Positions 3,700-44,060 of a stretch of DNA of 55,234 nt are shown here, one piece after another. Origin of the DNA: Desulfobacterales bacterium (GTDB taxonomy: Bacteria > Desulfobacterota > Desulfobacteria > Desulfobacterales > JAIPEE01); the NCBI GenBank assembly GCA_021737275.1, contig JAIPEE010000026.1:1-55234 (forward strand), written 5' to 3'. Every line of letters begins with the position of its first letter. Within the stretch, counting starts at the first letter, position 1. The notes under the pieces were generated by a model that did no database searches, was not told the origin of the DNA, and was given only the letters and a program-made list of their open reading frames with translations. Both the position numbers and the translations under genes were made by a program.

Positions 3700-4589
3700 A
3701 AAAGGGATTGAACCATTAAATCGGATCAAATTTTAGCATTTTATAAAGGTCATTGATAACATTGGGATTACTACGGTGGTTAAAACGAAATCCCATTTTT
3801 CTTATAAAGAGTTCAAAGTTTTTCTTATAACCGCCATGATATATTTTAAGTCGCCTTTTGATAAAGCCCCAAAAGTTTTCAATTTCGTTTATATGGGTTT
3901 TACCTTGGCCTAAGGTTTCATCATGTATTATTCGGACATGATGGAGCCCTTCGAGATCAAAGTTGTCATAGGCGCGAAAGCCATCTGAATAAACCCATGA
4001 TTGGGGTTTCATATGAGTTTTTATCGCACCCTGAAGTGAGGCTTTATCAACTTTATCAGGGAATACCACCCGGGCTTCACCATGTCGCTTCAGAAGCCCT
4101 AATACCGGTATTTTCCCACCGGCACCACGCCCTCTTTTACCTTTTTGGACACCGTCAAAGTATGATTCGTCCACTTCAATTTCACCGGCTAATTGTTTGA
4201 GTGATCGCCTGCTTTCTTCGGTAATTTTCAAGCACAACCGGTTAAAATAACGCTGAACTGTTTTACTGTTTAAGCCAAGGCCTTTAGCCACCTTGGCAGC
4301 CGGTACCATAAGCCAGAACAGTCTGACAATTTCTTTTTAAACTTTAACAGGCAAACGACTAATGGAGCGTTTATGAGTAAACTTTTTCCACATCGTTTAC
4401 ATTTTCTTCGGCCATCAGAAAGCTTGTATGAGTCACGAAAGTTACATTCAGGACAAAGGATATGACGTACCTTTTGGCATGTAACATTTTCAAGGGTACT
4501 ATTGTTACAAGCAGACTGTCTTATAAACTTTTTATTTTTAACCATCGAGCTCTTTTATCATGGCCTGATTTAAAGGTCTAATCCCGTTT
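3700..4589 (-). mobile_element. Decayed IS1595-like insertion sequence
   Basis: The element is bounded by imperfect inverted repeats. The left one (3700-3724) and the reverse complement of the right one (4564-4589) share AAA.GGGATT..ACC.TTAAATC and match at about 20 of 25 positions. Between them is a single transposase gene broken by a frameshift and a stop. I could not identify a target-site duplication, so the exact ends are uncertain, and the left repeat overlaps the end of the transposase frame. IS1595-family (ISXO2-like) elements typically encode one transposase with an N-terminal zinc ribbon, as here. Confidence 0.7.
3716..4545 (-). pseudogene. IS1595-family (ISXO2-like) transposase, frameshifted
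   Basis: The N-terminal part (from 4545) has a zinc ribbon CPEC...CKRCGKS. The C-terminal part (to 3716) has the DDE-type core: VDESYFDG, then YSDGFRAYD, then HINEIENFWGFIKRRL, ending in a conserved NHR motif (FRFNHRS). Two lesions separate them. A run of five A residues (plus-strand T run 4383-4387) appears to have lost one base, since adding one restores CGKKFTHKRSISRLP. Downstream in the restored frame is a TAA (complement of 4337-4339), between RLPVKV and KEIVRLFW. Removing both yields one continuous transposase. The gene is therefore inactive unless recoded twice, which is unlikely. Confidence 0.85.
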
Positions 4590-4715
4590 TATAAATAGAT
4601 GATTTTTTGAAGAGTTATGATGTACTATATAGCTGATTCAAGTAATGTGCCTGAAAGTATAAATTACAATCAGGCCTTACTCAAGCCAGCCGGCCATCAT
4701 TCTTTTCAGGTGAGA

Positions 4716-4975
4716 TTATATGAGATTTTCCACGTTGTATCCGATCTGACCAAAATAGCCATAATTATTGTAATACCATAAACTTTCAAGTGTTGAGAAA
4801 AAGAGGTAGGTTAATGCCAGTGGATCGATATCGGATGATAATTTACCACTTTTAATACTATCTTTAAGTACAGAGGTGATAACATCATGCCCGGCAGCAT
4901 CGTTGTGTTTAAATGTCTGCCACCGTCAATATCGGGCCACCGGTGAATAGTTTACATTCGTTTTTCATAAGAAGA
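4716..4975 (-). pseudogene. TetR-family regulator, C-terminal remnant
   Basis: No long open frame covers this stretch, but minus-strand translation recovers TetR-like ligand-domain sequence in two frames. One is LMKNECKLFTGGPILTVADI (to about 4911), resembling the '..GCPILN.A' turn of TetR proteins. The other continues as KHNDAAGHDVITSVLKDSI and then ALTYLFFSTLESLWYY, ending at TAA (complement of 4716-4718). A frameshift near 4911 separates them, and the DNA-binding N-terminus is missing. It lies next to the beta-lactamase-like hydrolase and may once have controlled it. The IS just downstream may have taken part in its decay. The family call rests on pattern recognition only. Confidence 0.55.
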
Positions 4976-27566: not shown

Positions 27567-28668
27567 TTATTCCTGCTTTCCGGAGAGGAGAATTGCTTCA
27601 ATAAAAGGATCCAGACCACCATCCAGCACCTGTGCGGCATTTCCGATCTCTACATTTGTCCTATGATCCTTAACCATCTGGTAAGGATGAAGAACATAAG
27701 AGCGGATTTGACTACCCCAGGCAATATCACCTTTGTTACCGTGCTCTTCCTGATGTTTTTCATCCTGAATCTGTTTTTCATGCTGATACAGCCTGGCTTT
27801 AAGAACATTCATGGCCATATCTTTATTTCGATGCTGTGATTTTTCCTGCTGACACTGGACAGCAATGCCTGTCGGCAGATGGGTTATTCTTACCGCACTA
27901 CTGGTTTTATTAACGTGCTGGCCACCGGCACCACTTGCCCGAAATACATCAATCCGGAGGTCTTTGTCATCAACCTCAACAACAATTTCATTATCCAGGT
28001 CCGGAAAAACATATACCGATGAAAAGGATGTATGACGTTTTCCGCCTGCATTAAAAGGTGAAATCCGCACAAGGCGGTGAACACCTTTTTCGGCTTTCAA
28101 ATATCCATATGCATATTCACCGGTTGCAGTGAATGTGGTGCTTTTTATACCGGCCTCATCGCCTGGCTGGAAATCTATGATCTTGATATCAAAGCCTTTT
28201 TGATCCATCCAGCGGGTGTACATTCGAAACAGTATTTCAGACCAGTCTTGGGCTTCAGTTCCGCCGGCACCCGCATTGATGGTAATAATGGCATTGTTCA
28301 TGTCATCCTCACCATCCAGCATGATTTCAAGTGAGAACTTTTCAGTTTCTTTTAAAAGCGTTTTTACCTGTTCGGATACTTCCTGAATGGTATCATCGTC
28401 ATCTTCTTCAGTTGCCATTTCAAAGAGAAGCTTACAATCCTCAACACCATCACACAGTTTTGAGATTTTGTTGTCTTTACCGGTAAGAAGCGATCTTTCT
28501 TTTAGTATGGATTTATTCTGATCAGGATTATCCCAGAAGCCGGGTTCCGCCATCATGGCTTCAATTTCCTGAAGTCTGAGTTTCAGGCCAGGCTGGTCAA
28601 AGACAACCTCGGAGTTGGTCTGTTTTTGCCTCAAGTTCTTTAAGTGCTTGTTTTAATTCTATAGACAT
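27567..28668 (-). CDS. prfB: Peptide chain release factor 2, with programmed +1 frameshift
   Basis: Release factor 2, about 367 residues, read in two frames. The first frame starts at ATG 28668 (GGAGG upstream) and gives MSIELKQALKELEAKTDQLR, ending at an in-frame TGA (complement of 28597-28599). The slippery site is CTT TGA C, with an internal Shine-Dalgarno-like GAGG a few bases earlier. A +1 shift continues as DQPGLKLRL into the long frame that ends at 27567. The SPF tripeptide for UGA/UAA recognition (RISPFNAGG) and the GGQ peptidyl-hydrolysis motif (GAGGQHVNKT) are both present. The frameshift is the classic autoregulation: low RF2 lets ribosomes slip instead of stopping. Confidence 0.96.
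28594..28616 (-). promoter_or_regulatory. prfB programmed frameshift site
   Basis: On the minus strand the bases read CGAGGTTGTCTTTGACC: a Shine-Dalgarno-like GAGG, then CTT TGA C. The geometry matches the known RF2 recoding signal, in which the purine-rich site lies shortly before the shift codon. Confidence 0.9.
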
Positions 28669-29050: not shown

Positions 29051-29519
29051 TTGACTGACATACCTACAAGATCATTATGTATTACTTGTTGCTCTTGGTT
29101 GTCACGAAGTAGTCTTTTACTCAGTCGGATGTGATCGAATAATCGAAGAGAGTAGATGAAAAATTAAATTTTTAGGTTTTTGCTCTTTCTTGCCTATGAA
29201 ATTATCTATTGACATTAATTTTTTTTTAAAATAGCATCGCAAGTAAAGTTGCTAATGCTGTCTGATATGTTTTTAATCGCTTGTGCGGTCTATTACTTTT
29301 CAATTGAAGCTAACAGCTTTATCATGTCTTGCCCGGTAGTACCTAGTAGTTCCCAGTAGTATTTAAAATTTAAACTCATTGCGCTTTATCATGTGAGCAT
29401 TTCTATATGCTTGTCATAATTTGGTAAAGTCCATGTTGTGTGGAATATGAATGTCTAAATCAAGGCTTTTGATTTTAGAGCTTTCAAATAATTAATTTAT
29501 CATAAGGAGACTTAAGATT
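29051..29519. other. Intergenic region upstream of the secreted-protein operon
   Basis: No gene is evident. A TTGACA at 29213 with a T-rich spacer could be a promoter, but it lies about 300 bases from the next start. Closer to the gene, three GTAGT motifs recur exactly every 10 bases (29336, 29346, 29356). Confidence 0.5.
29336..29365 (+). repeat. Three helically phased decamers, GTAGT-N4-A
   Basis: The decamers GTAGTACCTA, GTAGTTCCCA and GTAGTATTTA follow each other without gap, about 155 bases before the first gene of the secreted/RHS operon. The spacing of one helical turn is typical for binding sites of a multimeric regulator. This is inference from spacing only. Confidence 0.5.
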
Positions 29520-30299
29520 ATGAGATTTTTAAAATGTTTCAAAACAATGATTATCGCTGTTTTTGTAGTGTTGATATGCTCAGATGTTTTGCTCGCAGGT
29601 AACTTAACAGCATCAAGTACTGATACATATGCTCAAGTTACAATTAAAGGAACGGTATCGAATTCTGCCGAGTTTGCACGCTTAAAATTTAAGAATGTTG
29701 ACGGTTCAACAAATTATGATGGCGCAAGGATAACTTCATATAATGAAGGTGGAAACAAAAGTGGTAACCTTGTTTTTCATACCAATAATAACAATGCAGG
29801 ATTAATAGAAAGAATGCGAATTGATAAATTTGGCAATGTTGGCGTCGGAACAACATCGCCCCAGTCTATGCTTGATATAGCTGGAGATATTAATTCAGGC
29901 TCAATAAATTCAACCGGTACGATTACATCCGGTGAATTGAGTGTTGAAGGGAAAATTACAGCAGAGGAGATTGAGGTAGTTGATACCATTACAGCAATGA
30001 ATCTTAAAGTATCTGCTGATAGTTGGGCCGATTATGTATTTGAATCCGGTTATAGTCTTCGTTCTCTTGAATCCCTTGAATCATTTATAAATTCGAACCG
30101 GCAGCTACCGGATATGCCTTCAGAAGAAGAAGTCCTTGAAGGTGAACTGGATGTTGCAGGAATGCTTACAAAACAAATGAGGAAAATTGAAGAATTAACA
30201 CTTTATATCATTGAACAAAATAAAATTAACAACGAACAAGCTGAAAATATCTCTCGACTTGAAGAACGCTTGGCGATTTTAGAAGCAGCAATACAATAA
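29520..30299 (+). CDS. Secreted tail-fibre-like protein
   Basis: A 259-residue protein with a clear N-terminal signal peptide (hydrophobic IIAVFVVLICSDVLLA, cleavage near residue 27). The middle has the phage-tail-fibre-like MRIDKFGNVGVGTTSPQSMLDIAG motif, often seen as the 'GNVGIGTTSP..L.V.G' repeat in surface proteins. The C-terminal 60 residues (SLESFINSNRQLPDMPSEEE, then KIEELTLYIIEQNK and a final heptad-like stretch) resemble the coiled-coil trimer end common in Bacteroidetes-type cell-surface proteins. AAGGAG precedes the ATG. It is the first of three secreted-protein genes leading to the RHS protein and may be a surface fibre. No enzymatic motif is seen. Confidence 0.75.
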   Translation: MRFLKCFKTMIIAVFVVLICSDVLLAGNLTASSTDTYAQVTIKGTVSNSAEFARLKFKNVDGSTNYDGARITSYNEGGNKSGNLVFHTNNNNAGLIERMRIDKFGNVGVGTTSPQSMLDIAGDINSGSINSTGTITSGELSVEGKITAEEIEVVDTITAMNLKVSADSWADYVFESGYSLRSLESLESFINSNRQLPDMPSEEEVLEGELDVAGMLTKQMRKIEELTLYIIEQNKINNEQAENISRLEERLAILEAAIQ

Positions 30300-30340
30300 T
30301 TTATAATTTGAGAGTCATGGCATTTTTTTGAGGAAATGAA

Positions 30341-32665
30341 ATGAAAAATAATAAGGTATTTTCCATATTTCTTATGGTTACCAGTATGCTTTTAATAACT
30401 ATTGAAGCCCATTCTGCAGATCTTGAAATCAGCGGTGAGACAGCTACAGGTAATTATTATTCTGCAGAAAGCATATATACAGATGAGGAAGCAGGTTGCT
30501 GGGTTAACTCCGGAAGCGATGTGCAGTTTGTAGCAAATGATACCATCATATTAAAATCGGGTTTTTACGCACATGCCGGTAGTAGTTTTAAAACATTAAT
30601 ACGTGAGGTTGATCCACTTGATATGGACGCAAATACCTTGCCGGATGCATGGGAGTTACAATATTTTGGACATCTTGAAAATGATCCGGACTTTGACTCT
30701 GATGGTGACGGATTCACCAATTTCCAGGAATATGAAATGGGTTCTGCGCCAAATAATTCTGCCTCGGTTCCTGCTCCCATTGTTACCTTTAATGCTGATC
30801 CACAAATTACAGACGGTCTGACATCTGCCACACTGGCATGGACTACACTTTATGCTGATTCAATTTCTATTGAGCCTGGCCCCGGCGATGTTACAGGCCA
30901 AAATACCACTGATGTTTTCCCCGAATCAACAACAGAATATATATTAACGGCAACAGGCAACGGTGGGATCACCACTGCCACATTTACAGTCATTGTTGAT
31001 AGTGAATCGCCACAAATCATATCTTCATATCCCACGGAAAACGGCACATTCAATGCTGAAAACTTACAAATGGGATTAGTTGCAACATTTGTTGATAATA
31101 CCGGTATTTCATCCGTAACATTATTTAAAATAGATGGGCAGCAAGAAACAGATGTAACCGCCCTGGCAGTGATAGGTGATAACGCCATAAACTTTGATAT
31201 ATCAAATCTTGAAGACGGTATTTACAATTTTAAATTGGTTATTATTGATGATTTAGGAAATCAGTTAATCCACTATTTTACATTCACAATAGACAAGACA
31301 TTTCCAGTCACATCTCCCAGCATAGCAGCAGGCGCTTACAAAGAACCGTTTTCTTTAGACCTGGTTTGCTCAGAACCTGCGACCATTTTTTATTCCACAG
31401 ACGGTTCTCCACCATTTGAGGGCGGCGCAAATACCATTTCCGGAACATCTCCTATTCCGGGCATCAATATCAACCGCATTATGTGCCTGCAGTTTTATGC
31501 AAAAGATGCGGCCGGGAATATTGAACCGGTAAAACGTGCTATGTATCTCGCTGTAATCCCGGATGCCGTCACAGGGGTTACAGGTCAATACAATAATCCC
31601 AATGTAGACATTACCTGGGCGCCATTTAATGGGGCTGACAAATACCGTGTATACAGAGCATTGAGCGCTATAGATCATAACCTCCTTGTTCAAAGTGGTA
31701 AAGATGGATACGCACCACCAGGAAGGCTTCTATATTGTCCAACAGATCTACCGGCTAGTACTACTTCCTTTGTTGATACCAATGTAATGCCCGGCGTAAC
31801 CTATTATTATGGCGTCACTCAGGTGGACAGTAATGGGACAGAAGGGGTAATCGGACAATTGGTGTCGGTGCCAGTCCCGGAAACTGGGACGGCTTTAAAT
31901 AAAGAAGAAGCGATTACCAGAGCGCTTGCCTGGCTTGAATCAAAACAGGACAAAACCGGTTTTTGGGGAGAAACCCCGGGAACCAGGATTTTGGCAACAA
32001 GTCAGGTTCTGAATGCTTACAAATTGGCAGAAATATACGATTATAATACCTCCTGTGCCTTATTCTATTTGAGAGGACACCGGGCTGACAACAACGATTA
32101 TCTGGCACGTAAAATTCGGACACTGAGCACATTTAACCAGAATGCTGATATGCTTATAAGTAAACTTGTATCCCAGGCTTCTTTCGTCGGGATATACCTC
32201 CAGGGGTGGGCTCTGAATACTCATTATGCTTATGATCCTCTGGATACAGTTCTGGGTAAAAAAGCCATCGATTGTCACAGTTCAGACACAATTTCAAATT
32301 ATGCAGCCTATAAATTAAAAAATAATGAAAATCTTCAAAGCTCAATCCCCGACCGATTTGCCTGGATAATAGGATCAGACCCAAGCATTTATGTATCGAG
32401 CCTGGTTTATCAGGTTGTTGATGACGCTTATCCAGCTGATGCCCCTGTTTTTAATTCATCCTGGATAACCGGTTCCCAGGCGCCGGATGGGTCTTTTGGC
32501 AATCGATTGGTTGATACCAGTGCAGTCCTTATATGGTTAAACTATTTGGATGAGTCTCAAAAGCAAAATGCCATCACTTATCTGATTTCGCAACAAAAAC
32601 CCAACGGAAGCTGGGGCAATGATCCGTATCTTACAGGGCTTTGTCTGGAGGCACTGTTAAAATGA
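30341..32665 (+). CDS. Large secreted multidomain protein (calcium-repeat, FN3-like, TED-like C-terminus)
   Basis: A 774-residue protein with a signal peptide (FLMVTSMLLITIEAHSA). Residues about 28-88 hold a beta-rich motif with ILKSGFYAHAGSSF, seen in many Bacteroidetes surface proteins. Residues about 90-145 carry a calcium-loop repeat, DMDANTLPDAWELQYFG, followed by DFDSDGDGFTNFQEYEMGS. Ig-like and chitobiase-like domains follow (FYSTDGSPPFEGG), then an FN3-like domain (WAPFNGADKYRVYR). The C-terminal 220 residues start WLESKQDKTGFWGE and end AITYLISQQKPNGSWGNDPY, the tandem alpha-barrel pattern of squalene-cyclase or thioester-domain folds. No thioester CGEQ motif is visible. Its stop overlaps the first possible start of the RHS gene by 4 bases (ATGA). 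Confidence 0.75.
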   Translation: MKNNKVFSIFLMVTSMLLITIEAHSADLEISGETATGNYYSAESIYTDEEAGCWVNSGSDVQFVANDTIILKSGFYAHAGSSFKTLIREVDPLDMDANTLPDAWELQYFGHLENDPDFDSDGDGFTNFQEYEMGSAPNNSASVPAPIVTFNADPQITDGLTSATLAWTTLYADSISIEPGPGDVTGQNTTDVFPESTTEYILTATGNGGITTATFTVIVDSESPQIISSYPTENGTFNAENLQMGLVATFVDNTGISSVTLFKIDGQQETDVTALAVIGDNAINFDISNLEDGIYNFKLVIIDDLGNQLIHYFTFTIDKTFPVTSPSIAAGAYKEPFSLDLVCSEPATIFYSTDGSPPFEGGANTISGTSPIPGININRIMCLQFYAKDAAGNIEPVKRAMYLAVIPDAVTGVTGQYNNPNVDITWAPFNGADKYRVYRALSAIDHNLLVQSGKDGYAPPGRLLYCPTDLPASTTSFVDTNVMPGVTYYYGVTQVDSNGTEGVIGQLVSVPVPETGTALNKEEAITRALAWLESKQDKTGFWGETPGTRILATSQVLNAYKLAEIYDYNTSCALFYLRGHRADNNDYLARKIRTLSTFNQNADMLISKLVSQASFVGIYLQGWALNTHYAYDPLDTVLGKKAIDCHSSDTISNYAAYKLKNNENLQSSIPDRFAWIIGSDPSIYVSSLVYQVVDDAYPADAPVFNSSWITGSQAPDGSFGNRLVDTSAVLIWLNYLDESQKQNAITYLISQQKPNGSWGNDPYLTGLCLEALLK

Positions 32666-35600
32666 AGATAAAAAATCAAGCAAACAAAAGCGAATTGAAT
32701 ATATCCAAAAGGAACAGAGAAATGAATATTTCAAAACAACTTCACAAGCTTCCTTTAACACTGATCATGCTTGCTATTTTTGCCCTGCTTACAGCGACTT
32801 CTTTTGCAGATGATGAGCCAACATCCGATCATCTTAAAAAAACCATGGATTGCGACTGGGCGATTACTAATCCGGACGAGACAAATCCAGACAACTATAT
32901 TAATGATGGAAATGACGATCTGGTAAAGCTTGCTGAAAGCCTGGGTAATGATCCTGTTAAAATATATAACTGGGTTTACAAAAATATTTATTTTCCTCAG
33001 TTTCTTTATGATAAAGGAGGGCATAGGTGTTATTATTATGAAGATTCCCGTCTGGGAGCTATGGGTGCCTATTTAAATAAAATCGGGAACCATTGGGACC
33101 AATCATCTCTTCTTATTGCATTGCTTAGAATTTCAAAAATTCCCGCTCGTTATGTCAAAATACACAATGGCAATATTGTATACGTAGAAGCCTGGATGGA
33201 TTTGGATAATTACTGTAGTATCTTAGGCGGAAGTCAAAAAGGGTGGGTGCCCTTAGTTCCCTGGTTAAAAGAAATTGATTTAGTTGAGGGCTTTGATCTG
33301 TTCAAGGATGTCGCTGACTTTGAAAGTGATCCTCCCCCGCCTGGTTTGGATTTCGATTTTACGGGCTATCTGTCATCGATAAAATACCAGTCTGTATTAG
33401 AGCTTTATGAAAATAAGATTCAGGAATATCTCAATGTTAATTATCATGGAAAATCTTTGAAAGATATTCCTTTCAAAGAAGTTTTAATTGACAAAACAAC
33501 ATCTCTACTGCCTCGATCACTTCCTAAAAAACTTATTTCCGGAGACAGAACACGATACTTTGAAGTTCCTGAAGAAAATCGGGACAATATTCACCTGTAT
33601 ATTAAAAAAACCGACGGTACATCATTGCTGGATTACATCTTGTTTATGCCTCAGATTGCAGGGAAAAAATTCTGTCTGGATTGGACATATTCGGGGACTC
33701 AACTCACCCCGGTTTTCAAAATCGATAGCCGGATCACTTGTACCGGTTCCCAATCCATAACTGCTGAAGAATCGATAACGCTTTCTTATAAGATTAAAGA
33801 TCATTCCCAAACAGTAAATCGACCGGAACGGGTGGCCGGTACCTATATCCATATGGGATTTGACCCATTGAGTGCCTCTATAAAAACCATAGAGAAAGCA
33901 AAACAGAATCTGCAAACTATTGATGCCGGCCTTGTTCTGGACCCTACTACCCACGAAGAGTATTTTGGTTTAATGGGTCAGGTTTTGGTAGAAACTTTTT
34001 TAAACAGGCTCTATGAAAATTCTAAAAAAGCAGCCGGATATTTTTATGGAACACAGTGTTGGGGCCTCTGTCCTGTATTTATCTATTCAAAACCTCATTC
34101 AGAAGAGAATCCCGTTCTAACGGATGCAGAATCTAAATTTTATTACCATCCGCAGTGGAATATCGATGCCCAAGTCAAAGGTAACCTCAAAAGATTAGAC
34201 AGTGTAGATAATGCCATTATCTCTCCACCTGGGGACGCCCCCATCAACCAAACCTGTAGCCGGCTCATTGGATATGGTGCTTCATATGATGAAGGCAGAA
34301 TTTTTGAGGACTGGATGGATACACCTGGGGCAAGCACCATCAAAGGGTTGATGGTTGCCAATGAGGATTTGGATGGTACAGGCAATCGAAGTATAGAGCT
34401 GGTTGAATCTGATATTGATGAGACACCAACTGCTTTAACGTGCAATTTTAATGATTTAACACAGATCGAGAAAGTTGAAAATAAACTTTTTTGGATTGAT
34501 CCATATAAAGCCTTTGACGGGTTTCATATTGATGGCCTTAGAGTGGCAGATGGTTTTAAAGCCGACGGCTATTCATATGATACTAATGCTGTTGCCGGTG
34601 ACTATGCAATATTGGTTACAGGTACAACAACTATCGAAAGGGGTACTAAATTTGATCTAAATTCAGTCGATGTAAGTGCCCTTTTTAATGATACTGCTGG
34701 CGTAACAATCAAATTCCAGGGCTATAAAGGGTCAAGTAGAACGCCTGCGTTTACTGTATATAAATATGCAAAAACTAAATCTCGAGCAACTAAGAATTTT
34801 AATAATACTAATGCTATTACGGATATTAACAAGCTGGTCATAACCCTGGTCACTACCAATAAAGGGCCAGTGATTTTAGATAATATGGCATATACCCGCA
34901 AAGAATATATCGCAGATATTGAAAACGAAACTGAATTGCATTTAGGGTATGAATCGGTATTGTCACTCATTGATCAATTGCGAGATGGCAGCCGGGTGAT
35001 TACTCCTATTCAGCAGGTAAGATATGCAGAATTGTCCGGCGATATTAGAATTGTCCACAGTCCGGTCAGCGATTTGTACTCTTTTGGTATGGATAATGGC
35101 GGTTCCGCATCAACATTCACCTTGGACGATTATTCATCAACCTATCTGGACGCCTATAATTTCGATACATATATCTATGGCACGCCGGCATATACCAGTA
35201 TTCTGGATGATTATTCAACCACGGTCAACAACATAGAGACAGCCACCTATATAACCCTTCCCAATACGGCTAATGCTCTGGAACATTATGCAGGCGATCC
35301 GGTTGATATGGTTAAAGGCGAGTTTTATACAGAAGAAGAACCGGACTTCAAGATTAAGTCAAGAGGTTTTGATCTGTCAGTTTATAGAAAGTACAAGAGC
35401 AGGCTGATATACAATGGACCTTTTGGTTTTGGATGGACATGGAACCATGCCGAACGGATTATACCCCTGGAAAGCGACGATGTCATCTACCATAATAACG
35501 ACGGTGTCTCTTTTGAAATTACTTATGAGGATGATGTATGCGTCTATCCCAAAGGCAGCCGGTTTGTATTAGAAAAACTGGTCGATGGATACAGTATTAC

Positions 35601-38600
35601 ACAAAATCAAAGCAGAATTAAATCCTTCTTTTCTATCGATGGATACCTGGTCAAAAAAGAAGATCCATTTGGAAATACCCTGGAATATGAATATACCCAT
35701 CCGGAATTTGCCAATCGAATAACAAAAATTAAAGATGCGTTGGGAAGAAGCCTGACTTTAGATTACAATGCCAATGGAAAAGTTGAAAAAATAACTGATT
35801 TTACAGGCAGATATTGTACATACGGATATGGACCGGAAAATGATCCGGATAACCCGGACAGAAAAGACAACCTGATTGCCTTTACGGATCTGGAAAGTAA
35901 TCTTACACAGTATGAATACCTTTATGGTCAGGAGAATGAATTCAACAACCATAATATGAGAAAGTACATTCTCCCCAATGGAGACTGGCTTGAAATCGGG
36001 TATTACAGAAACGACCAGGCGGCCTATCATACCAACAAAAAAGGCGAAACCTTTAATTTTATGTACAGCCGCCTGAATCGGTATGCGGAAACCTGGAACG
36101 AAGAAGGCTATTATCGTAAAATCTTTTTCAACGAAAGCAGTGATGTTGTCAGGTATGCCAATGAAGACGGTACTATTGAGCAGATGGAATATGATGATCA
36201 CCACAATAAAATATCCCATACAGACGGCAATGGTAACACAACCGTATTTCAATACTATCCGGATGGCACACCCGAAAGCGAGCAGGATGGATTTGCCGCC
36301 AAACGCAAACTCTATGTCAAAACGAATGCCATGGGCCAATCCCGGCACTACAAGTATGAATCTGTCAACCACCCGTTTGCTCCATCCGAAATCATAGATC
36401 CCAACGGGAATATCACCCGATTTGCCTATAACTTAGATTCAAGCCTTAATCAAAAAATTCAGGCACCAGGATATGAATATAATGAAGAAGGTGTCCTGGT
36501 TAACAATGGTAGTGATGGTCTTATTACCGTCTACACTTATGATGACTACGGTAATGTTTTAACCATCACCTCTCCGGATGAAAGCTTTATAGTAAATACC
36601 TATGATGAAAACGACCTGTATCTGGAATCCGTCCAGGACAAAAATGGAATGGTCACCGAATATAACTACTATAAAACCTGCGGGGCTGACAGGGCGGACT
36701 GGAAGCCCATTAGCAGTATGAAATCAAAAGAAGTGGTGCTTCCCGACGAAACAACGCTTAAGACAAGTTATGAATATAACCTCTACGGACAGGTTGCCAA
36801 AGAGATCAATCCATTACTGCAGACGACAGAATTTAACTATGATGTTAACCGAAAATTGACTAAAAAGATCGAAGCAAATGGAGCGGAAACCATCTTCGAA
36901 TATGATACGGCAAGAGATGTTGTATCAGGGGCAAAGCTCATTCAAATGACAGATCCTGAAGGCCATATTGAAACCTATCAATATGACAAGACGGGTAATC
37001 TCATTGAAAAAACAGATAAAAACGGTAATATTACTATATACGCGTACGATCAGATGAACCGGCCTATCTGTGAAATAGACCCCTTGTATCAGTCTAAATG
37101 GCTGACCTATGACGGGGCAGGAAATGTTGTTGAAAAGGTGGATCCAAACGGAAATGTCACCACCTTTCAATACGACGCTGCCAACCGGCTGGTAAAAATG
37201 ATTACGCCCGAAGGTGAGGAAAACGGATTCTACAGCACCATAGCGTATGACAGCAACGGCAATAAAATCATTGAAACCGATGCCGAAGGTATAAAGACTC
37301 AATACATTTACAATGAATTGAATCAAATAACGTCTAAAACCATCGGATATCTGTCATCACAACCCAGAACTTTCGAATACCGTTATAATGCTGCCGGTCA
37401 GATCATAAAAGAGACTCAATCACCGGGCAATTTTACTGCCTATGAATATGACGGTAACGGAAATCTTATCGATCAGAAAACATATGACAAAGACGGTATT
37501 ACCCTGCTTCGTCATACCATCATTGAATATTACGATGATGCGAGAAACCTTATCAAAAGCAAAACCATTAAAGATGGGTTTGAAACTGACGGTACGTCCA
37601 GAGATATAATCGAGCAGTATGAGTATGATGCGCTGGGTCGTAAAATGTCTGTCACAGATTCCAACGGCTATAAAACAAAATATGAATATGATTCTGTGGG
37701 TAACCTGGTTCTGGTCATAGACCCTTCAGGAGCCCTTACCCAATATGGTTATGATAAAAACAAGCGGTTGATTTCTACCACCAATGCCATTGGTGACACA
37801 ACAATTACCGGCTATGACGCTGTAGGTAATGTAACTATGACTCGCGATGCACTGGGTAATGAAACATTATCCTTTTATGATGCGGCAAACCGTAAAATAA
37901 GTGTTGAGGACGCCCTGGGCAATATCAACATTATTGATTATGATGCCAACGGCAACGTCATCGCTCAAACCGATCCCAAAGGCAATGTCACCCGGCTGGA
38001 ATATGATATGGACAACCGGCTGGTCAGGGAAACAGATGCCCTTGGCAATGAAACAAAGATGACCTACGACCATACTGGACGGATCATACTAAAAGAATCA
38101 GCCAAACATGTGTTCACACAAATGCTTTATGATGACCCGTCAGGGCAGGTTACAAAAACAACACAGGCAATGGGTACAATGGATGAAAGCATTACTCAGT
38201 TCCAGTATGATGATAACGGCAAGCTGGCACAAGAAACCGATGCCATGGGTATTCCTACCTCCTATATCTATGACGGTCTTGGTCGTGTGGTTTCTAAACG
38301 AATCGGTCTTGACTCAGATGACAATTCCATTCTCCCTGCCGGGTCAAGTGAGCCTGTTAGGGAATATTTTTCTTATTATCCTACAGGACGGATCAAAACC
38401 CATACCGACCCTAAAAACCTTGTCACAAGATTTGAGTATGACGGTGTCGGCAACAAAACCAAAGAGACAGGCCCCCTACTCAATATCACGCGATACGAGT
38501 ATGACGATAATAATAACCTGATATCTGTTCTTTACCCGGAAGGGGTTATCCATTCATATGAATATGATCTTCTTAACCGGGTAACCATGAAATATGAGCA

Positions 38601-41202
38601 GGGTGTCGAAACCCGTATGAGATATAATGCCAATAATCAGCTGACCATCGAGTCCAGCGGCAATAATATCGATACGGTTTTTATCTATGACAACCTGGGA
38701 CGTCTTGTTGAGAAAACCCAGGGGTGGCTGACTGTAGAACAGACCACGTCGCGGTTCGGGTATGATAGTAACAGTAATATGGTTTATGTGACCAATGGCC
38801 TTGATAAAACCGTATTTTACCAATACGACGAACTCAACCGTAGAGTCCTTGAAACCAAAGCAAGCGATGTCGATCCGACAACCCTTGATCCGGATAATAT
38901 AAATTATGCTGCCTTTACCGCATCAAAGAAAGTCCGATACGATGCCGGCAGTAACCCGGATAAGGTTACCAAAGCAGACAACAGCAGTATTTACTATATC
39001 TATGACAATCTGGACCGGGTTACACAGGTAAAACACAATACCAGACTGGAACAGGAATTTTTCTATGATACCGCATCCCGTATGATACTGTCTTTCGATT
39101 ATAACCGTAATCAGCATACCCAGACCGTGGAATATTTAGATTACAACCTGTATCAGCAGCATACAATTGAACTTCAGAATGCCAGACAGGTAGAAACAGG
39201 ATATGATGATAATGCCAACTTGACCGGCATTTTATATCCTTCCGGTAAAACCATTACCAGAACCTATACAGATAACAATCAGCTTGAAACCGTTGTTAAC
39301 GGCAACCTGACTCTGGCCGCGATAAACCAGTACAACGGCCTTGGCAGCATCAGGCAGATGACCCTTGGTAACGGGATCGATCTTTCTTTTGATTATGATA
39401 CCCACAACAGAGAAACACAAAGAATCTATACCAAAGGCAGCACTCTGTACAATCATGAGATTACATTCCGTGATGACCAGGGGAATATCCGTGAAGAAAC
39501 CATTGCTTCGGTTACGGGAACGGTCCAAAAGACACATACCTACGACAACCTGGATCGCCTGACAGGGTCCACTGTCACTAATGGGCCCAGCCTCTCCTGG
39601 ACCTATGATCTGGAAGGCAACTGGACCAGTACCAATCAGAACGGAATATCTGAAACCCGTACTTTAGATAATGACAACCAATATGACAGTATTACGGGCC
39701 AGTCACCTGCCTATGATGCCAACGGCAACATGACTGTATACAACGGGCTGACATATGTCTATGACTGGGCCAATCGATTGGTTCAGGTCAAAGAGGGCTC
39801 AACGGTTAAGATAGAGTATTTCTATGATGCCCGAAACAGGCGAGTGAAAACTTTGGATGCCTCTTCCGGTATAGCTGTTGCCATTGAATATATCTATCAT
39901 GACAGCCGGGTAATCGAAGAATACAAAGACGGCAGCCTGGATAAAACGTTTGTCTATGCCAATTATATAGACGATCCCATTGTCATGACATCCGGTGGTA
40001 ACCGCTACTATTATATCAAAGACCGTCAGTTCAGTATCAAGGCTGTATCTGATGATACAGGATCTATTGTTGAATCTTATGAATATTCAGCGTATGGTGT
40101 GATGACGATCTTTGATAATCAGAATATCGATATCAGCGCAGCAGGATCTGCCATCGACAACCCTTACGGCTATACCGGCAGGCGATGGGATGCCTATACG
40201 GGACTCTGGTATTACCGGAACAGGATGTATTCACCAATGCTTGGCCGTTTTATGCAGAAAGATCCGGCAGGGTATGTGGATGGATTGAATCTGTATGCTT
40301 ATGTATTAAATAATCCTCTTATGTACACAGACCCGATGGGGTTAATGGCACGGTATGATAGCAGTTATTTTGACAGCTCATCGTCATATTCAGATATTTA
40401 TCAGATTCCAACCTTTTCAACCTTTGAATATGATAATAATATATCTTTGAACGTTGCGAAAGTTCCTTTTAATGCAAGTACAAATATTGTTAATGATGGA
40501 ATAAGCATTGCAAATAATGCTATTTATGATGTCAATATAGCAACTGAATATGGGACATCCGCCTTAATTGGTTATAAAGCCCTTGACGCTATTGTTTCGG
40601 TTAAGAATTTTTGGGATTCAATACCCAAATCACCTTCTGATGTATGGTCATCTCTAAAAAACAGTATAGACAGTCTTAAATATGCTAAAACGTATGAGAC
40701 TTCCGCAACGATTGCAGGTGAAGTTTTACTTGCAGAAAGAATGCTTACAAATAACTATTTGGGAGGAGTTCCAAAGAAAACATCTCTGACATATGATATC
40801 TCTAAATGGGGTGAATATGGCCTTCCATCTGATGGCAATTTTGTTAGGACGCTAACTCCGAAACAATACCGTGATTTAAAAGCAGGAAGGCAGTTTGATT
40901 TTGCTGGTAGTAGTCAACCAGATTTTGGATATCCTGAGGGAATGGGATTTGTTGGGTCTGCTGAGGAAGTACGCCACATTAAAACGATATCGGGATATAG
41001 AGAAGCCCTTAAGTTAAATTATGATCCTAAATACATAATGGAGTTTCAGCTAAAAGACCCATCGAAATTACAAAATGTACTTGATGCACCTTGGGATGAG
41101 TTTGTTCGAGGTGGAAAAAGTGGATCAGGTTTTTCAGAGTGGAATTATCCAGGAATAAATAGCACTGATATTATTAATCCTACAGTGAGGTTATTAGAAT
41201 GA
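32662..41202 (+). CDS. Giant RHS/YD-repeat protein with variable C-terminal tip
   Basis: About 2846 residues, exported (LTLIMLAIFALLTATSFA). Residues about 95-205 resemble a transglutaminase-like domain (LLIALLRISKIPARYVKI), but the Cys, His and Asp positions are not conserved, so it is probably inactive. From about residue 876 comes a pre-RHS domain (AGDPVDMVKGEFY, then FDLSVYRKYKS and GFGWTWNH), then dozens of YD repeats (YEYD..GN motifs) forming the shell. The core ends with YGYTGRRWDAYTGLWYYRNR and LGRFMQKDPAG, up to DPMGL at 40344. The last 285 residues form an AT-rich tip of unknown kind. The next gene overlaps by 4 bases and probably encodes immunity. Two starts are plausible: 32662 (GGAGG upstream, ATGA overlap) and 32722 (AAGGA upstream, nearer the signal). 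Confidence 0.9.
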   Translation: MKIKNQANKSELNISKRNREMNISKQLHKLPLTLIMLAIFALLTATSFADDEPTSDHLKKTMDCDWAITNPDETNPDNYINDGNDDLVKLAESLGNDPVKIYNWVYKNIYFPQFLYDKGGHRCYYYEDSRLGAMGAYLNKIGNHWDQSSLLIALLRISKIPARYVKIHNGNIVYVEAWMDLDNYCSILGGSQKGWVPLVPWLKEIDLVEGFDLFKDVADFESDPPPPGLDFDFTGYLSSIKYQSVLELYENKIQEYLNVNYHGKSLKDIPFKEVLIDKTTSLLPRSLPKKLISGDRTRYFEVPEENRDNIHLYIKKTDGTSLLDYILFMPQIAGKKFCLDWTYSGTQLTPVFKIDSRITCTGSQSITAEESITLSYKIKDHSQTVNRPERVAGTYIHMGFDPLSASIKTIEKAKQNLQTIDAGLVLDPTTHEEYFGLMGQVLVETFLNRLYENSKKAAGYFYGTQCWGLCPVFIYSKPHSEENPVLTDAESKFYYHPQWNIDAQVKGNLKRLDSVDNAIISPPGDAPINQTCSRLIGYGASYDEGRIFEDWMDTPGASTIKGLMVANEDLDGTGNRSIELVESDIDETPTALTCNFNDLTQIEKVENKLFWIDPYKAFDGFHIDGLRVADGFKADGYSYDTNAVAGDYAILVTGTTTIERGTKFDLNSVDVSALFNDTAGVTIKFQGYKGSSRTPAFTVYKYAKTKSRATKNFNNTNAITDINKLVITLVTTNKGPVILDNMAYTRKEYIADIENETELHLGYESVLSLIDQLRDGSRVITPIQQVRYAELSGDIRIVHSPVSDLYSFGMDNGGSASTFTLDDYSSTYLDAYNFDTYIYGTPAYTSILDDYSTTVNNIETATYITLPNTANALEHYAGDPVDMVKGEFYTEEEPDFKIKSRGFDLSVYRKYKSRLIYNGPFGFGWTWNHAERIIPLESDDVIYHNNDGVSFEITYEDDVCVYPKGSRFVLEKLVDGYSITQNQSRIKSFFSIDGYLVKKEDPFGNTLEYEYTHPEFANRITKIKDALGRSLTLDYNANGKVEKITDFTGRYCTYGYGPENDPDNPDRKDNLIAFTDLESNLTQYEYLYGQENEFNNHNMRKYILPNGDWLEIGYYRNDQAAYHTNKKGETFNFMYSRLNRYAETWNEEGYYRKIFFNESSDVVRYANEDGTIEQMEYDDHHNKISHTDGNGNTTVFQYYPDGTPESEQDGFAAKRKLYVKTNAMGQSRHYKYESVNHPFAPSEIIDPNGNITRFAYNLDSSLNQKIQAPGYEYNEEGVLVNNGSDGLITVYTYDDYGNVLTITSPDESFIVNTYDENDLYLESVQDKNGMVTEYNYYKTCGADRADWKPISSMKSKEVVLPDETTLKTSYEYNLYGQVAKEINPLLQTTEFNYDVNRKLTKKIEANGAETIFEYDTARDVVSGAKLIQMTDPEGHIETYQYDKTGNLIEKTDKNGNITIYAYDQMNRPICEIDPLYQSKWLTYDGAGNVVEKVDPNGNVTTFQYDAANRLVKMITPEGEENGFYSTIAYDSNGNKIIETDAEGIKTQYIYNELNQITSKTIGYLSSQPRTFEYRYNAAGQIIKETQSPGNFTAYEYDGNGNLIDQKTYDKDGITLLRHTIIEYYDDARNLIKSKTIKDGFETDGTSRDIIEQYEYDALGRKMSVTDSNGYKTKYEYDSVGNLVLVIDPSGALTQYGYDKNKRLISTTNAIGDTTITGYDAVGNVTMTRDALGNETLSFYDAANRKISVEDALGNINIIDYDANGNVIAQTDPKGNVTRLEYDMDNRLVRETDALGNETKMTYDHTGRIILKESAKHVFTQMLYDDPSGQVTKTTQAMGTMDESITQFQYDDNGKLAQETDAMGIPTSYIYDGLGRVVSKRIGLDSDDNSILPAGSSEPVREYFSYYPTGRIKTHTDPKNLVTRFEYDGVGNKTKETGPLLNITRYEYDDNNNLISVLYPEGVIHSYEYDLLNRVTMKYEQGVETRMRYNANNQLTIESSGNNIDTVFIYDNLGRLVEKTQGWLTVEQTTSRFGYDSNSNMVYVTNGLDKTVFYQYDELNRRVLETKASDVDPTTLDPDNINYAAFTASKKVRYDAGSNPDKVTKADNSSIYYIYDNLDRVTQVKHNTRLEQEFFYDTASRMILSFDYNRNQHTQTVEYLDYNLYQQHTIELQNARQVETGYDDNANLTGILYPSGKTITRTYTDNNQLETVVNGNLTLAAINQYNGLGSIRQMTLGNGIDLSFDYDTHNRETQRIYTKGSTLYNHEITFRDDQGNIREETIASVTGTVQKTHTYDNLDRLTGSTVTNGPSLSWTYDLEGNWTSTNQNGISETRTLDNDNQYDSITGQSPAYDANGNMTVYNGLTYVYDWANRLVQVKEGSTVKIEYFYDARNRRVKTLDASSGIAVAIEYIYHDSRVIEEYKDGSLDKTFVYANYIDDPIVMTSGGNRYYYIKDRQFSIKAVSDDTGSIVESYEYSAYGVMTIFDNQNIDISAAGSAIDNPYGYTGRRWDAYTGLWYYRNRMYSPMLGRFMQKDPAGYVDGLNLYAYVLNNPLMYTDPMGLMARYDSSYFDSSSSYSDIYQIPTFSTFEYDNNISLNVAKVPFNASTNIVNDGISIANNAIYDVNIATEYGTSALIGYKALDAIVSVKNFWDSIPKSPSDVWSSLKNSIDSLKYAKTYETSATIAGEVLLAERMLTNNYLGGVPKKTSLTYDISKWGEYGLPSDGNFVRTLTPKQYRDLKAGRQFDFAGSSQPDFGYPEGMGFVGSAEEVRHIKTISGYREALKLNYDPKYIMEFQLKDPSKLQNVLDAPWDEFVRGGKSGSGFSEWNYPGINSTDIINPTVRLLE
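40345..41199 (+). other. Variable C-terminal tip (putative toxin) of the RHS protein
   Basis: This region encodes everything after the conserved DPMGL end of the RHS core. It is visibly more AT-rich than the core. A low-complexity serine/tyrosine linker (YDSSYFDSSSSYSD) comes first, then mainly helical sequence, then a compact last 120 residues with FVRTLTPKQYRDLKAGRQFD, MGFVGSAEEVRHIKTISGYR and FVRGGKSGSGFSEWNYPG. I recognise no known toxin fold. Polymorphic-toxin logic says this is the effector released from the RHS shell. Confidence 0.6.
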
Positions 41203-41507
41203 TGCCCTGTAAATATTTAGGCATTGATGGAGTAGAAAAAATGCTTGACTTAGACAATGTTGTTGACATTGTCAGAGGCGATAGCAAGAAAAAGATTGGG
41301 TGGTCTGCTTTAATTGTTTTCGATCCTAGCTCTAAAACCTTTGTGGAACTAAGGGATTCCCCTCCAGACGTGAAAGGGAATTCAGAGGATGAGGCAGAAG
41401 AGGTTACGCCCAGCTATATTTCATCTGCATTTAATATTGATGAAAAATTAGTTTTAGATATTGAGAATAATATAAAAGAATGGCGGTTTGTTGATTTAGG
41501 AGGGTAA
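41199..41507 (+). CDS. Putative immunity protein for the RHS tip
   Basis: A 102-residue soluble acidic protein with no signal peptide, so it stays in the producing cell. Its ATG overlaps the RHS stop codon (ATGA), and GAGG lies 8 bases before it. Position, size and AT-rich composition are those of immunity genes paired with polymorphic toxins. Sequence such as WSALIVFDPSSKTFVELRDS and VLDIENNIKEWRF suggests a small alpha/beta fold, but I recognise no named family. A strong terminator follows 58 bases after its stop. Confidence 0.65.
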   Translation: MMPCKYLGIDGVEKMLDLDNVVDIVRGDSKKKIGWSALIVFDPSSKTFVELRDSPPDVKGNSEDEAEEVTPSYISSAFNIDEKLVLDIENNIKEWRFVDLGG

Positions 41508-41564
41508 CACCAAAACCCATCGGAGCAAACCCAATAGGGTCAGGTCCTAATTATTAACTATTCG

Positions 41565-41607
41565 AGCGGTTAGAGGAAGTAATCTTCCTTTAACCGCTTT
41601 TTGCTTT
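41565..41607 (+). terminator. Strong terminator of the RHS operon
   Basis: AGCGGTTA..AGGAAG pairs with CTTCCT.TAACCGCT around a short loop, giving about 14 paired bases with one mismatch, followed by TTTTGCTTTT. It ends the three-gene secreted/RHS/immunity transcript. Confidence 0.92.
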
Positions 41608-41949: not shown

Positions 41950-42219
41950 TTATGGAAAGAATCGATAAACGTCGCTTCTGTGTAAAAAACGGACAAAGGT
42001 GACGGTATCACTTTCAATGATCAGGCCGAGGCGATAATCACCGAGCCTGATCCGGTAAAAATCGCCGTTTGCCTTCAACTTTTTGAGATTTTTGATATCA
42101 TGGATGTGTTCTACAGCTTCCACTTCATGGATAACCTGCTGGACACGTTCGGATAATTTTTGTCCCGGCTTTGCCTTTCTTAAATCCTTGGCAAAACTCT
42201 TTTTAAATTCGATGTTCAC
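41950..42219 (-). CDS. RelE/ParE-family toxin
   Basis: An 89-residue RelE/ParE-fold protein: FKKSFAKDLRKAKPGQKL at the N-terminus, then IKNLKKLKANGDFYRIRLGDYRLGLII, and the closing VTFVRFLHRSDVYRFF, a very typical RelE arrangement. The basic and aromatic residues of mRNA-cutting RelE members are in place. The ATG overlaps the antitoxin stop by 4 bases. With the preceding XRE gene it forms a three-gene unit. It is likely an mRNA interferase; a ParE-type gyrase role cannot be excluded by eye. Confidence 0.88.
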   Translation of the reverse strand: MNIEFKKSFAKDLRKAKPGQKLSERVQQVIHEVEAVEHIHDIKNLKKLKANGDFYRIRLGDYRLGLIIESDTVTFVRFLHRSDVYRFFP

Positions 42220-42425
42220 GAATGACCTTCCAGTATGTTGAAGATGTCTTTTTTGCTTGCGGTTCCGCTTGTTTTACCTTTTTGAATGGCGTGAACCATT
42301 GCAATATCCTCAACTGCCTCGGTAATAAGGTCCTGGAAAACACCTCTTCTTTCTTCAAGGGCTTCCATTAAGGCTTCTTTAAAAAGCTGTTTGATTCTGC
42401 CTTCGTCTATAGGTGTCGGTATCAT
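42216..42425 (-). CDS. Antitoxin partner of the RelE-like toxin
   Basis: A 69-residue acidic, mostly helical protein (IKQLFKEALMEALEERRGVF, then TEAVEDIAMVHAIQKGK), with no recognisable DNA-binding motif. It overlaps the toxin start by 4 bases, the normal antitoxin-toxin arrangement. I chose the ATG at 42425 because GGAGG lies 6 bases before it; a TTG four codons upstream falls on that site. The lack of a helix-turn-helix suggests that the XRE gene just upstream supplies operator binding. Confidence 0.8.
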   Translation of the reverse strand: MIPTPIDEGRIKQLFKEALMEALEERRGVFQDLITEAVEDIAMVHAIQKGKTSGTASKKDIFNILEGHS

Positions 42426-42452
42426 GTTATCCTCCAAAAATATTGATAGCTG

Positions 42453-42887
42453 TTAAATTGCCGCCACTTTTTTCTTTAATCTGTCTTTTTCAATAAATGT
42501 ATCTAATATCTGTAATACCTGGCGTTTTTCTTTTGTATTCATTTGTTCAACCTTGCTGAACCGTCGCCAGAGTCGCATGTCTTTTTTTGAGCCGTTTGTT
42601 TTCTTCATGCCAAGCAGTTCGTCCGCTGTCGTGCCCAATGCTTCCGCTAAAATGGGCAGCAAGTGCGTAGGCGGATACTTGGCCTGTTTTTCATAATAAG
42701 CGATCATTCTTTGTGATACTCCGGTCTCTCTGGCAAGGTCACGCTGAGAATAACCGGCTGCATTTCTTAGTTTGGCCATTCGATTGCCAAAAGACTCAGT
42801 CTCGTTAATGTTTATTTTTTTGGGCATATCCATTTTCTCCTTTATGGAATCTTGCCCTTTATTATACACCAATATTTTGCTGTTCAT
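42453..42887 (-). CDS. XRE-family regulator of the toxin-antitoxin operon
   Basis: A 144-residue protein. Residues about 33-92 form a helix-turn-helix of XRE type: RMAKLRNAAGYSQRDLARET, then GVSQRMIAYYEKQAKYPP and ILAEALGTTADELLGM. The C-terminal 50 residues are basic and helical, with a possible dimerisation helix. The ATG at 42887 is preceded by AGGAG. It starts the operon and stops 27 bases before the antitoxin. A perfect 7+3+7 palindrome sits in its promoter, overlapping the likely -10, which fits autorepression. Confidence 0.88.
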   Translation of the reverse strand: MNSKILVYNKGQDSIKEKMDMPKKININETESFGNRMAKLRNAAGYSQRDLARETGVSQRMIAYYEKQAKYPPTHLLPILAEALGTTADELLGMKKTNGSKKDMRLWRRFSKVEQMNTKEKRQVLQILDTFIEKDRLKKKVAAI

Positions 42888-43237: not shown

Positions 43238-44060
43238 GGACGTACATTAAAACATAAATTGACAGAAAAATTTTTGACACATATTACCCATATGCCAAGA
43301 AAAGCCGGAATAGACGCGTCAGGTGCGCTACACCATATTATTATCAGAAGGATCGAACGCCGCAAGATCTTTCTTGATGAAGATGATCGGAATAATTCCA
43401 TAGAACGTCTCGGCAATATTATTGATGAAACCCATACAGGATATTTTGCATGGGCACTTATACCTAATCATTTTCATCTTCTCTTAAGAACCGGCGATGT
43501 TAAATATCGCGAGTCATGCAGCGTATTTTGACGGGTTACGCTATTTCTTTCAACAGAAAGCATCACAGGCACGACCATCTTTTTCAAAATCGATACAAAT
43601 CTATCCTGTGCCGGGAAGATACCTATTTGCTTGAGCTTGTACGATACATCCACTGAATCCATTGAGAGCTGGGATTGTCCGGGATATTTCCGGCCTTGAA
43701 AAATATCCTTATTGCGGCCTTAGTTCCTTTTTCGTGAAAGTGTCGCCGTCTTGGTAGGATACCGGTTATGTGCTCAAGAAATCAAAAGGTCTGGATTTAG
43801 AATCGGTTGCAAAAAAGGTGGAGAAGTTGACAGGAATTAAACCGCACGATCTTTTTTCGAGTGACAGGAAGCACAGCACAGTGCAGGCAAGAAATTTGTT
43901 ATGTTTTTGGGCGTATGAAGAAATTGGAATGACGCAACCCGAAATTGAGTCAAATTTGAGTATGACCCTGGCAGCGGTGAGCCATGCGATAAAACGTGGA
44001 AGAGGGGTTGCGGCAGAAAATAAATTCAGGTTATTTTAATTTATTATTTAATGTACGTCC
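43238..44060 (+). mobile_element. Broken REP-associated (Y1) transposase element with inverted ends
   Basis: The two ends, 43238-43260 and 44038-44060, are inverted repeats of 23 bases matching at 21 (GGACGTACATTAAA.(C/A)ATAAATT). Between them lies one decayed Y1-type transposase. A run of G residues lies near the left end (43225-43229) and a run of C residues directly abuts the right end (44059-44063). The right end interrupts another transposase reading frame. Such single-gene elements with GTAC-containing palindromic ends are typical of IS200/REP-associated tyrosine transposases. Confidence 0.75.
43292..44039 (+). pseudogene. REP-associated tyrosine transposase with DnaA-like C-terminus, broken
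   Basis: The N-terminus MPRKAGIDASGALHHIIIRR and the HxH motif in ALIPNHFHLLLRTG mark a Y1_Tnp (PF01797) transposase. At about 43500 the frame is lost, but the next frame continues as VMQRILTGYAISFN and LFQNRYKSILCREDTYLLEL. Near 43654 a T is missing (RYIH, then NPLRAGIVRDISGLEKYPYC in another frame). A TAG near 43756 replaces an expected glutamine in W-DTGYVL. The last part (from 43770) encodes LTGIKPHDLFSSDRK and AAVSHAIKRG, the DnaA-like DNA-binding tail of these proteins. With at least three lesions it is inactive. Confidence 0.85.

What the first reader, a model, noticed from the sequence alone, without database searches (positions are those of the whole stretch)
29520..41507. Secreted three-gene RHS locus with an unrecognised toxin-like tip and overlapping immunity gene
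A tail-fibre-like protein, a TED/cyclase-fold multidomain protein and a 2846-residue RHS protein follow in line, the last two overlapping by ATGA, and a 102-residue soluble protein overlaps the RHS stop by ATGA. All three large products carry signal peptides, so export may be by Sec to the surface rather than by a VgrG/T6SS route; no VgrG, PAAR or Tc-toxin partner is in the window. The tip (40345-41199) is AT-rich and resembles no toxin I know. This may be an undescribed contact-dependent delivery system in which the fibre and the multidomain protein act as surface partners of the RHS shell.
Basis: partly seen in the sequence, partly recalled or inferred. Interest (0 to 1): 0.75.

Follow-up and report, generated by a model that had tools for sequence, protein, structure and literature searches.

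The report
Exported RHS toxin with paired antidote
This is an exported bacterial weapon gene whose exchangeable warhead, with its own antidote gene, belongs to an unlisted family predicted to attack NAD; such weapons are a known kind, but this warhead-antidote pair has no entry in the family and structure libraries searched.

Summary
Four + strand genes (fibre, multidomain toroid protein, 2846-aa RHS protein, 102-aa protein) follow in line with two ATGA overlaps, between a promoter-like site and a strong terminator-like hairpin.

The toxin-immunity reading is strongly supported by comparison. The last ~139 residues of the tip recur at 54-70% identity in four unrelated bacteria: on two different Dyella RHS proteins, on a CdiA-like filamentous haemagglutinin, and as an orphan fragment. 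In all three complete cases a homologue of the 102-aa gene follows, again overlapping by ATGA. So this is a mobile CT-immunity cassette.

The tip is not without likeness. Its predicted model matches only ADP-ribosyltransferase/NADase-superfamily folds (best Tne2 and Rhs1-CT NADases), with invariant Arg, Phe and Glu where such enzymes keep catalytic residues. No Pfam, NCBIfam or PDB sequence family covers toxin or immunity.

The proposed new delivery system is only partly supported. Signal peptide, dead transglutaminase and RHS is a published Sec-exported class (Zhang 2012). The genome has no T6SS sheath gene. The multidomain protein is conserved beside this RHS type in two other genomes; the fibre is not. 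Outer-membrane export and entry remain unknown.

The parts
29209..29237 (+). promoter-like site TTGACA-17-TAGCAT upstream of the fibre gene
   Evidence: consensus scan, 10 of 12 matches; weak evidence by itself
29520..30299 (+). fibre-like secreted protein, 259 aa, signal peptide, C-terminal coiled-coil end conserved in other secreted fibres
   Evidence: relatives; no Pfam family above cut-off
30341..32665 (+). multidomain secreted protein, 774 aa: signal peptide, coat-hanger stack domain, Ig-like/CHB_HEX domains, C-terminal alpha/alpha toroid (terpene-cyclase-like QW repeats, no CGEQ and no DxDD)
   Evidence: conserved next to the same RHS type in L018 and L020
32662..41202 (+). RHS polymorphic toxin, 2846 aa
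32662..32808 (+). N-terminal signal peptide region (Met21 is an alternative start)
   Evidence: direct reading of the sequence
32950..33255 (+). transglutaminase-like domain (residues 97-198), catalytic C-H-D apparently replaced (GNHWDQ / EAWMD / WVPLVPW)
   Evidence: PF01841 E=4.5e-07; sequence and orthologue comparison
35293..35508 (+). DUF6531 at the N-terminal edge of the RHS shell, with PVDMVKGE, comparable to the published N-terminal cleavage sites PVSMVTGE / PVYVASGE
   Evidence: PF20148 E=2.8e-14; motif at residue 880; published motifs in PMC13285283
40084..40344 (+). RHS-associated core with double DPxG self-cleavage motif (residues 2534 and 2557)
   Evidence: TIGR03696; motif
40345..40782 (+). 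variable linker between RHS shell and toxin
   Evidence: outside the part conserved in the relatives
40783..41199 (+). ART/NADase-fold toxin domain, ~139 aa; invariant R2729, F2763, Y2779, E2826 (R34, F68, Y84, E131 of P0001)
   Evidence: relatives in four other genomes; model and fold match
41199..41507 (+). immunity protein, 102 aa, ATGA overlap with the toxin stop
   Evidence: homologues directly after the toxin relatives, also with ATGA; model pLDDT 82
41564..41599 (+). terminator-like hairpin, 16 pairs plus T-rich tail, closing the operon

Best explanation
A Sec-exported RHS polymorphic toxin with its immunity gene. The RHS protein is exported through its signal peptide. Its transglutaminase-like head no longer has the catalytic residues and probably acts as an anchoring/binding module. 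The YD shell encloses the C-terminal tip, which is cut free at the DPxG motif. The tip is a ~139-residue ART-superfamily domain that, once in a neighbouring bacterium, consumes NAD(P) (NAD glycohydrolase) or ADP-ribosylates a target. The 102-residue protein stays in the producer's cytoplasm, binds the tip and protects producer and kin. Toxin and immunity genes move together as one cassette between unrelated RHS and CdiA-type carriers. The multidomain toroid protein is probably a surface partner of this RHS class. Shown here: gene layout, homologous paired cassettes on unrelated carriers, absence of a T6SS sheath gene from the assembly, conservation of the multidomain-RHS pair. Inferred: ART fold (from a prediction), enzymatic activity, protection, anchoring, outer-membrane passage and entry into the target.
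For: Tip relatives at 54-70% identity to the window's tip in Pseudogulbenkiania, two Dyella and a 'Pedobacter' MAG, on carriers that differ completely: RHS+LysM, Fil_haemagg_2, an orphan fragment. Homologous immunity gene with ATGA overlap in all three complete loci (BLASTP 3e-17 and 3e-07; junctions). Toxins are more conserved (50-81% pairwise) than immunities (23-67%). AlphaFold2 model pTM 0.70, pLDDT 71; all 46 VIA-align entries with Z>=2 are ART-superfamily or ART-like folds, led by Tne2 NADase (Z 6.0, 3.3 A over 99 residues) and Serratia Rhs1-CT NADase 6xtd (Z 5.4), then Tpt1 and RhsP2 (Z 5.0). Invariant R34 on strand 1, F68 before strand 2, E131 at the fifth strand; the R-to-E distance of 97 compares with 94 in RhsF (PMC13324451), 90 for K-E in Tne5 (PMC13285283) and 86 in RhsP2 (PMC12340436). 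Toxins acidic, pI 4.1-5.9, unlike the basic RNA-binding surface of RhsP2. DPxG motif and DUF6531. No VipB in the genome. Published class of signal peptide + inactive transglutaminase + RHS (PMC3482391).
Against: No toxicity or enzyme data exist. The model is of moderate confidence and rests on 5 sequences; Z 5-6 is in the range where the tool warns of common arrangements, and no Foldseek hit reached E<=0.001. The Gln that is strictly conserved in TNT-type NADases has no evident counterpart; an invariant Glu sits at the similar distance from the C-terminus. No route across the outer membrane or into a target cell was identified.
Confidence: 0.72

Rival explanations
1. Same cassette, but the tip is a true ADP-ribosyltransferase that modifies a protein or RNA (RhsP2/RhsF/Tre-like) rather than an NAD hydrolase.
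For: RhsP2 and the Tre toxins are among the matches (Z 5.0 to 3.5); invariant Arg plus aromatic plus Glu resembles the R-Y-E triad of RhsP2 and RhsF; F68 lies 34 residues after R34, as Y1524 after R1490 in RhsP2; Glu rather than the Gln of TNT-type NADases.
Against: The two best matches are NAD glycohydrolases; the acidic tip makes nucleic acid an unlikely target.
Confidence: 0.35
2. The tip is not an ART-fold enzyme but some other toxin; the fold match is an artefact of a moderate model.
For: Moderate pLDDT, low Z, no sequence match to any library.
Against: Every VIA row with Z>=2 belongs to one superfamily or its look-alikes, and the invariant residues fall on the expected elements.
Confidence: 0.17
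3. The locus is an inactive or non-toxic surface RHS adhesin, and the small gene is incidental.
For: RHS repeats also occur in proteins without toxins (general knowledge); fibre and multidomain genes look like surface proteins.
Against: The small gene's homologue follows the same tip on three unrelated carriers; frames intact, motif residues kept.
Confidence: 0.05

Closest known systems
Sec-exported RHS polymorphic toxins with inactive N-terminal transglutaminase (Zhang et al. 2012, PMC3482391)
   Same: signal peptide, transglutaminase-like head with lost catalytic residues, RHS array, exchangeable C-terminal toxin, neighbouring immunity gene, sometimes Ig-like domains
   Different: here the carrier has an adjacent conserved toroid/Ig multidomain partner gene, and the toxin and immunity families are not in Pfam or NCBIfam
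Tne2 / Rhs1-CT (Serratia Db10, proposed Tne3) / Tne5 NAD(P) glycohydrolase effectors
   Same: best structural matches (Tne2, Rhs1-CT); small C-terminal ART-like domain with downstream immunity gene; Tne5 also occurs on RHS and CDI carriers
   Different: no detectable sequence similarity to the solved ones, invariant Glu where TNT-type NADases keep Gln, no clear fold match for the immunity protein, no T6SS; the Tne5 sequence could not be compared
RhsP2 and RhsF RNA-targeting ART toxins
   Same: RHS tip, ART fold, Arg-aromatic-Glu arrangement
   Different: they are T6SS-delivered; RhsP2 needs a basic RNA-binding surface, whereas this tip is acidic
WapA of Gram-positive bacteria (general knowledge; a Streptococcus example is PMC12704120, abstract only)
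   Same: exported RHS-type polymorphic toxin with C-terminal toxin used in competition, no T6SS
   Different: Gram-positive; no outer membrane to cross

Membership tests
RHS polymorphic toxin | RHS/YD repeats with RHS-associated core and DPxG self-cleavage motif before a C-terminal extension | tested here: met
   PF05593 2e-114, TIGR03696 4e-22, DPAG/DPMG at residues 2534 and 2557
RHS polymorphic toxin | C-terminal toxin exchangeable between carriers | tested here: met
   same tip on RHS+LysM, CdiA-like and orphan contexts in unrelated genomes
RHS polymorphic toxin | immunity gene directly downstream | tested here: met
   homologous gene with ATGA overlap in 4 of 4 complete loci, the window included
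RHS polymorphic toxin | toxicity neutralised by the immunity protein | not testable with these tools
   needs expression in a laboratory strain
Sec-exported RHS with inactive transglutaminase | signal peptide then transglutaminase-like domain before the RHS array | tested here: met
   PF01841 4.5e-07 at residues 97-198, DUF6531 at 878; hydrophobic N-terminus by eye
Sec-exported RHS with inactive transglutaminase | loss of one or more of the catalytic C, H, D | tested here: met
   GNHWDQ, EAWMD, WVPLVPW at the three motif places, read by eye against the family motif as known to me
T6SS RHS effector | T6SS present in the genome | tested here: not met
   no VipB (PF05943) match in the 96% complete genome; positive control rings in E. 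coli
ADP-ribosyltransferase superfamily | split-sheet ART fold | tested here: inconclusive
   all rows with Z>=2 are ART-like, best Z 6.0, but moderate model
ADP-ribosyltransferase superfamily | NAD-binding/catalytic triad (R-S-E, H-Y-E or R-Y-E) | tested here: inconclusive
   invariant R34, F68, Y84, E131 in 5 sequences; S71 is not invariant
Tne2/TNT-type NADase | strictly conserved Gln in the active site | tested here: inconclusive
   the only invariant Gln are Q101 and Q109, outside the fifth-strand region; E131 has the comparable C-terminal spacing; no residue-level structural alignment available
Tne5 | sequence clade with Pluralibacter Rhs-CT | not tested
   reference sequence not available through the tools
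TED (thioester) domain protein, for the 774-aa product | CGEQ thioester motif | tested here: not met
   no CGEQ among its 7 cysteines

The most novel reading that the evidence does not exclude
An uncatalogued NAD-consuming ART-fold toxin with a new-fold immunity protein, exchanged among RHS and CdiA carriers across phyla, here displayed by a Sec-dependent two-protein surface device (toroid/Ig partner plus dead-transglutaminase RHS shell) that delivers toxin without T6SS, Tc or CdiB partners.
Probability: 0.25. Interest if true: 0.75.

Novelty: new member of a known kind. Interest (0 to 1): 0.45.

Why it matters
It gives a short testable toxin-immunity pair with no family entry, likely aimed at NAD, found on RHS and CdiA carriers in distant bacteria. 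It also marks a tractable locus for an open question: how Sec-exported RHS toxins of Gram-negative bacteria leave the cell and enter targets without a T6SS. The conserved neighbouring toroid protein is a concrete candidate partner.

Tried and rejected
Library searches of tip and immunity in Pfam, NCBIfam, PADLOC and the PDB sequences, singly and (except PADLOC) by family members or profiles, gave only a 28-residue chance-like match to TbsP (best 5e-4) and weak PDB matches with E>=0.15; TbsP was rejected because the match covers a fragment and lies far below the cut-off. No tip relatives besides the window itself in 297 genomes of the phylum, none besides the starting Dyella in 398 genomes of its phylum, none in viral contigs, plasmids or phages; no other immunity relatives in 194 genomes of the order or plasmids. 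So the cassette is rare, and orphan immunity genes were not found. Tip variability among true orthologues could not be tested: the two clear orthologues (L018, L020) end before the tip, the weaker match L019 is not an RHS protein, and the second RHS gene of this genome (C46) stops at the contig end inside the core. Immunity model: no PDB fold above Z 4.0. The T6SS and thioester readings were rejected.

Full report
What is there. The window holds, on the + strand, a 259-aa fibre-like protein (29520-30299), a 774-aa multidomain protein (30341-32665), a 2846-aa RHS protein (32662-41202) and a 102-aa protein (41199-41507). The second and third genes, and the third and fourth, overlap by ATGA. A promoter-like site lies at 29209-29237, and the longest terminator-like hairpin of the + strand lies at 41564-41599, just after the last gene; the four genes look like one operon (inference).

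The RHS protein. Pfam gives 20 RHS repeats (E=2e-114), DUF6531 at residue 878 and a transglutaminase-like domain at 97-198; NCBIfam gives the RHS-associated core ending at 2561. The double DPxG motif (residues 2534 and 2557) stands exactly before the tip, and PVDMVKGE at residue 880 resembles the published N-terminal cleavage site PVSMVTGE. The transglutaminase motifs read GNHWDQ, EAWMD and WVPLVPW, so the catalytic Cys, His and Asp appear lost (motif comparison by eye). This is the 'signal peptide - inactive transglutaminase - RHS - toxin' class of Zhang et al. 2012, who proposed that the dead domain anchors the toxin on the surface (PMC3482391).

The tip is a mobile cassette. One scan of 85,000 genomes with the last 151 residues found four relatives: a Pseudogulbenkiania MAG (70%), Dyella flagellata and Dyella sp. 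S184 (56-58%) and a contig labelled Pedobacter (54%). The Dyella copies end RHS proteins of another type, with LysM and without the dead transglutaminase in the stretch held; the 'Pedobacter' copy ends a filamentous-haemagglutinin (CdiA-like) protein, and may come from another bacterium misbinned (inference). The Pseudogulbenkiania copy is a fragment with stops upstream. In the three complete loci the next gene is a homologue of the window's 102-aa protein (23-33% identity; BLASTP 3e-17 and 3e-07) and starts with the same ATGA overlap. Conservation begins at window position ~40783, so the toxin domain is ~139 residues and the rest of the tip is a carrier-specific linker. Unrelated carriers with the same adjacent pair are hard to explain except as a toxin-immunity cassette.

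What the toxin probably does. AlphaFold2 on the five sequences gives pLDDT 71 and pTM 0.70. Foldseek finds nothing significant (best E 0.07, a CC0527 entry), but all 46 entries with Z>=2 in the structural realignment belong to ART-superfamily or ART-like folds (CC0527 counted as ART-like from general knowledge): Tne2 NADase (Z 6.0), Serratia Rhs1-CT NADase (5.4), Tpt1 and RhsP2 (5.0), TreTu, TreX and eukaryote-directed ARTs lower. Middling Z values alone would not be convincing; the uniformity of the list and the placing of invariant residues are. R34 lies on strand 1, F68 just before strand 2, Y84 in the following helix and E131 at the fifth strand, 20 residues from the C-terminus. Known relatives show similar spacing: RhsP2 R1490-Y1524-E1576, RhsF R1403-Y1456-E1497, Tne5 K1392-E1482 (there Glu1482 proved not critical). 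TNT-type NADases keep a Gln, which this family seems to have replaced by Glu. The acidic pI (4.1-5.9) speaks against an RNA target of the RhsP2 type. I favour NAD(P) hydrolysis, with ADP-ribosylation of a protein as close rival. The immunity model (pLDDT 82, beta-rich) has no clear fold match (best Z 4.0).

Delivery and the upstream genes. The genome (96% complete) has no VipB, hence probably no T6SS, and two secretin genes; their systems were not typed. The RHS head is rare: in 146 genomes of the order it was found, besides the window genome, in G307 and G335, plus a weak match in a non-RHS protein of G308. In both G307 (L018) and G335 (L020) the multidomain gene (41-42% identity) stands directly upstream of the RHS gene, so that pairing is conserved. 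The fibre is not found in either genome at E<=1e-8, and in L018 an integrase-like ORF stands upstream instead. In the window genome, fibre relatives precede another RHS gene (C46) and a 2595-aa non-RHS surface protein (C35) whose N-termini resemble that of the multidomain protein. The fibre is therefore a general companion of large exported proteins here. The multidomain protein carries toroid QW-like repeats without DxDD or CGEQ, so it is more likely a binding protein than an enzyme or a thioester protein (inference).

Verdict. The finding is real and its core interpretation holds: a toxin-immunity pair on an exported RHS protein. The carrier class is known, the toxin fold is probably known, and the toxin and immunity families appear uncatalogued. 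How the protein crosses the outer membrane and enters a target is open.

Noticed in passing
window 28668-27567 (-): prfB (release factor 2) has the classic programmed +1 frameshift: ATG at 28668, in-frame TGA in CTTTGAC at 28602-28596 with an upstream AGG; the ORF caller therefore shows a truncated TTG-start ORF.
   Followed up: partly
window 29050-28682 (-): 122-aa ORF next to prfB that looks like a fragment of an alpha/beta-hydrolase-type gene, possibly a remnant.
   Followed up: no
window 41950-42887 (-): RelE/ParE-like 89-aa protein and a 144-aa helix-turn-helix protein just downstream of the immunity gene; the orphan toxin fragment in L010 also lies next to a RelE-like pair (4373-4850).
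   Followed up: no
window 43259-44039 (+): Pieces of a REP-associated (Y1) transposase-like gene, apparently broken into two frames.
   Followed up: no
L021 (G000:C46:66000-78356): Second fibre + exported RHS gene in the same genome; the contig ends inside the RHS core, so its tip is unknown.
   Followed up: partly
L055 (G000:C35:50000-66000): Fibre followed by a 2595-aa exported protein with Ig-like, SCP/CAP-like and lipase-like stretches, a Kelch-like protein, and then a partial duplicate of both genes.
   Followed up: no
L013: Contig labelled Pedobacter carries a CdiA/filamentous-haemagglutinin protein more typical of Pseudomonadota; possible misbinning.
   Followed up: no
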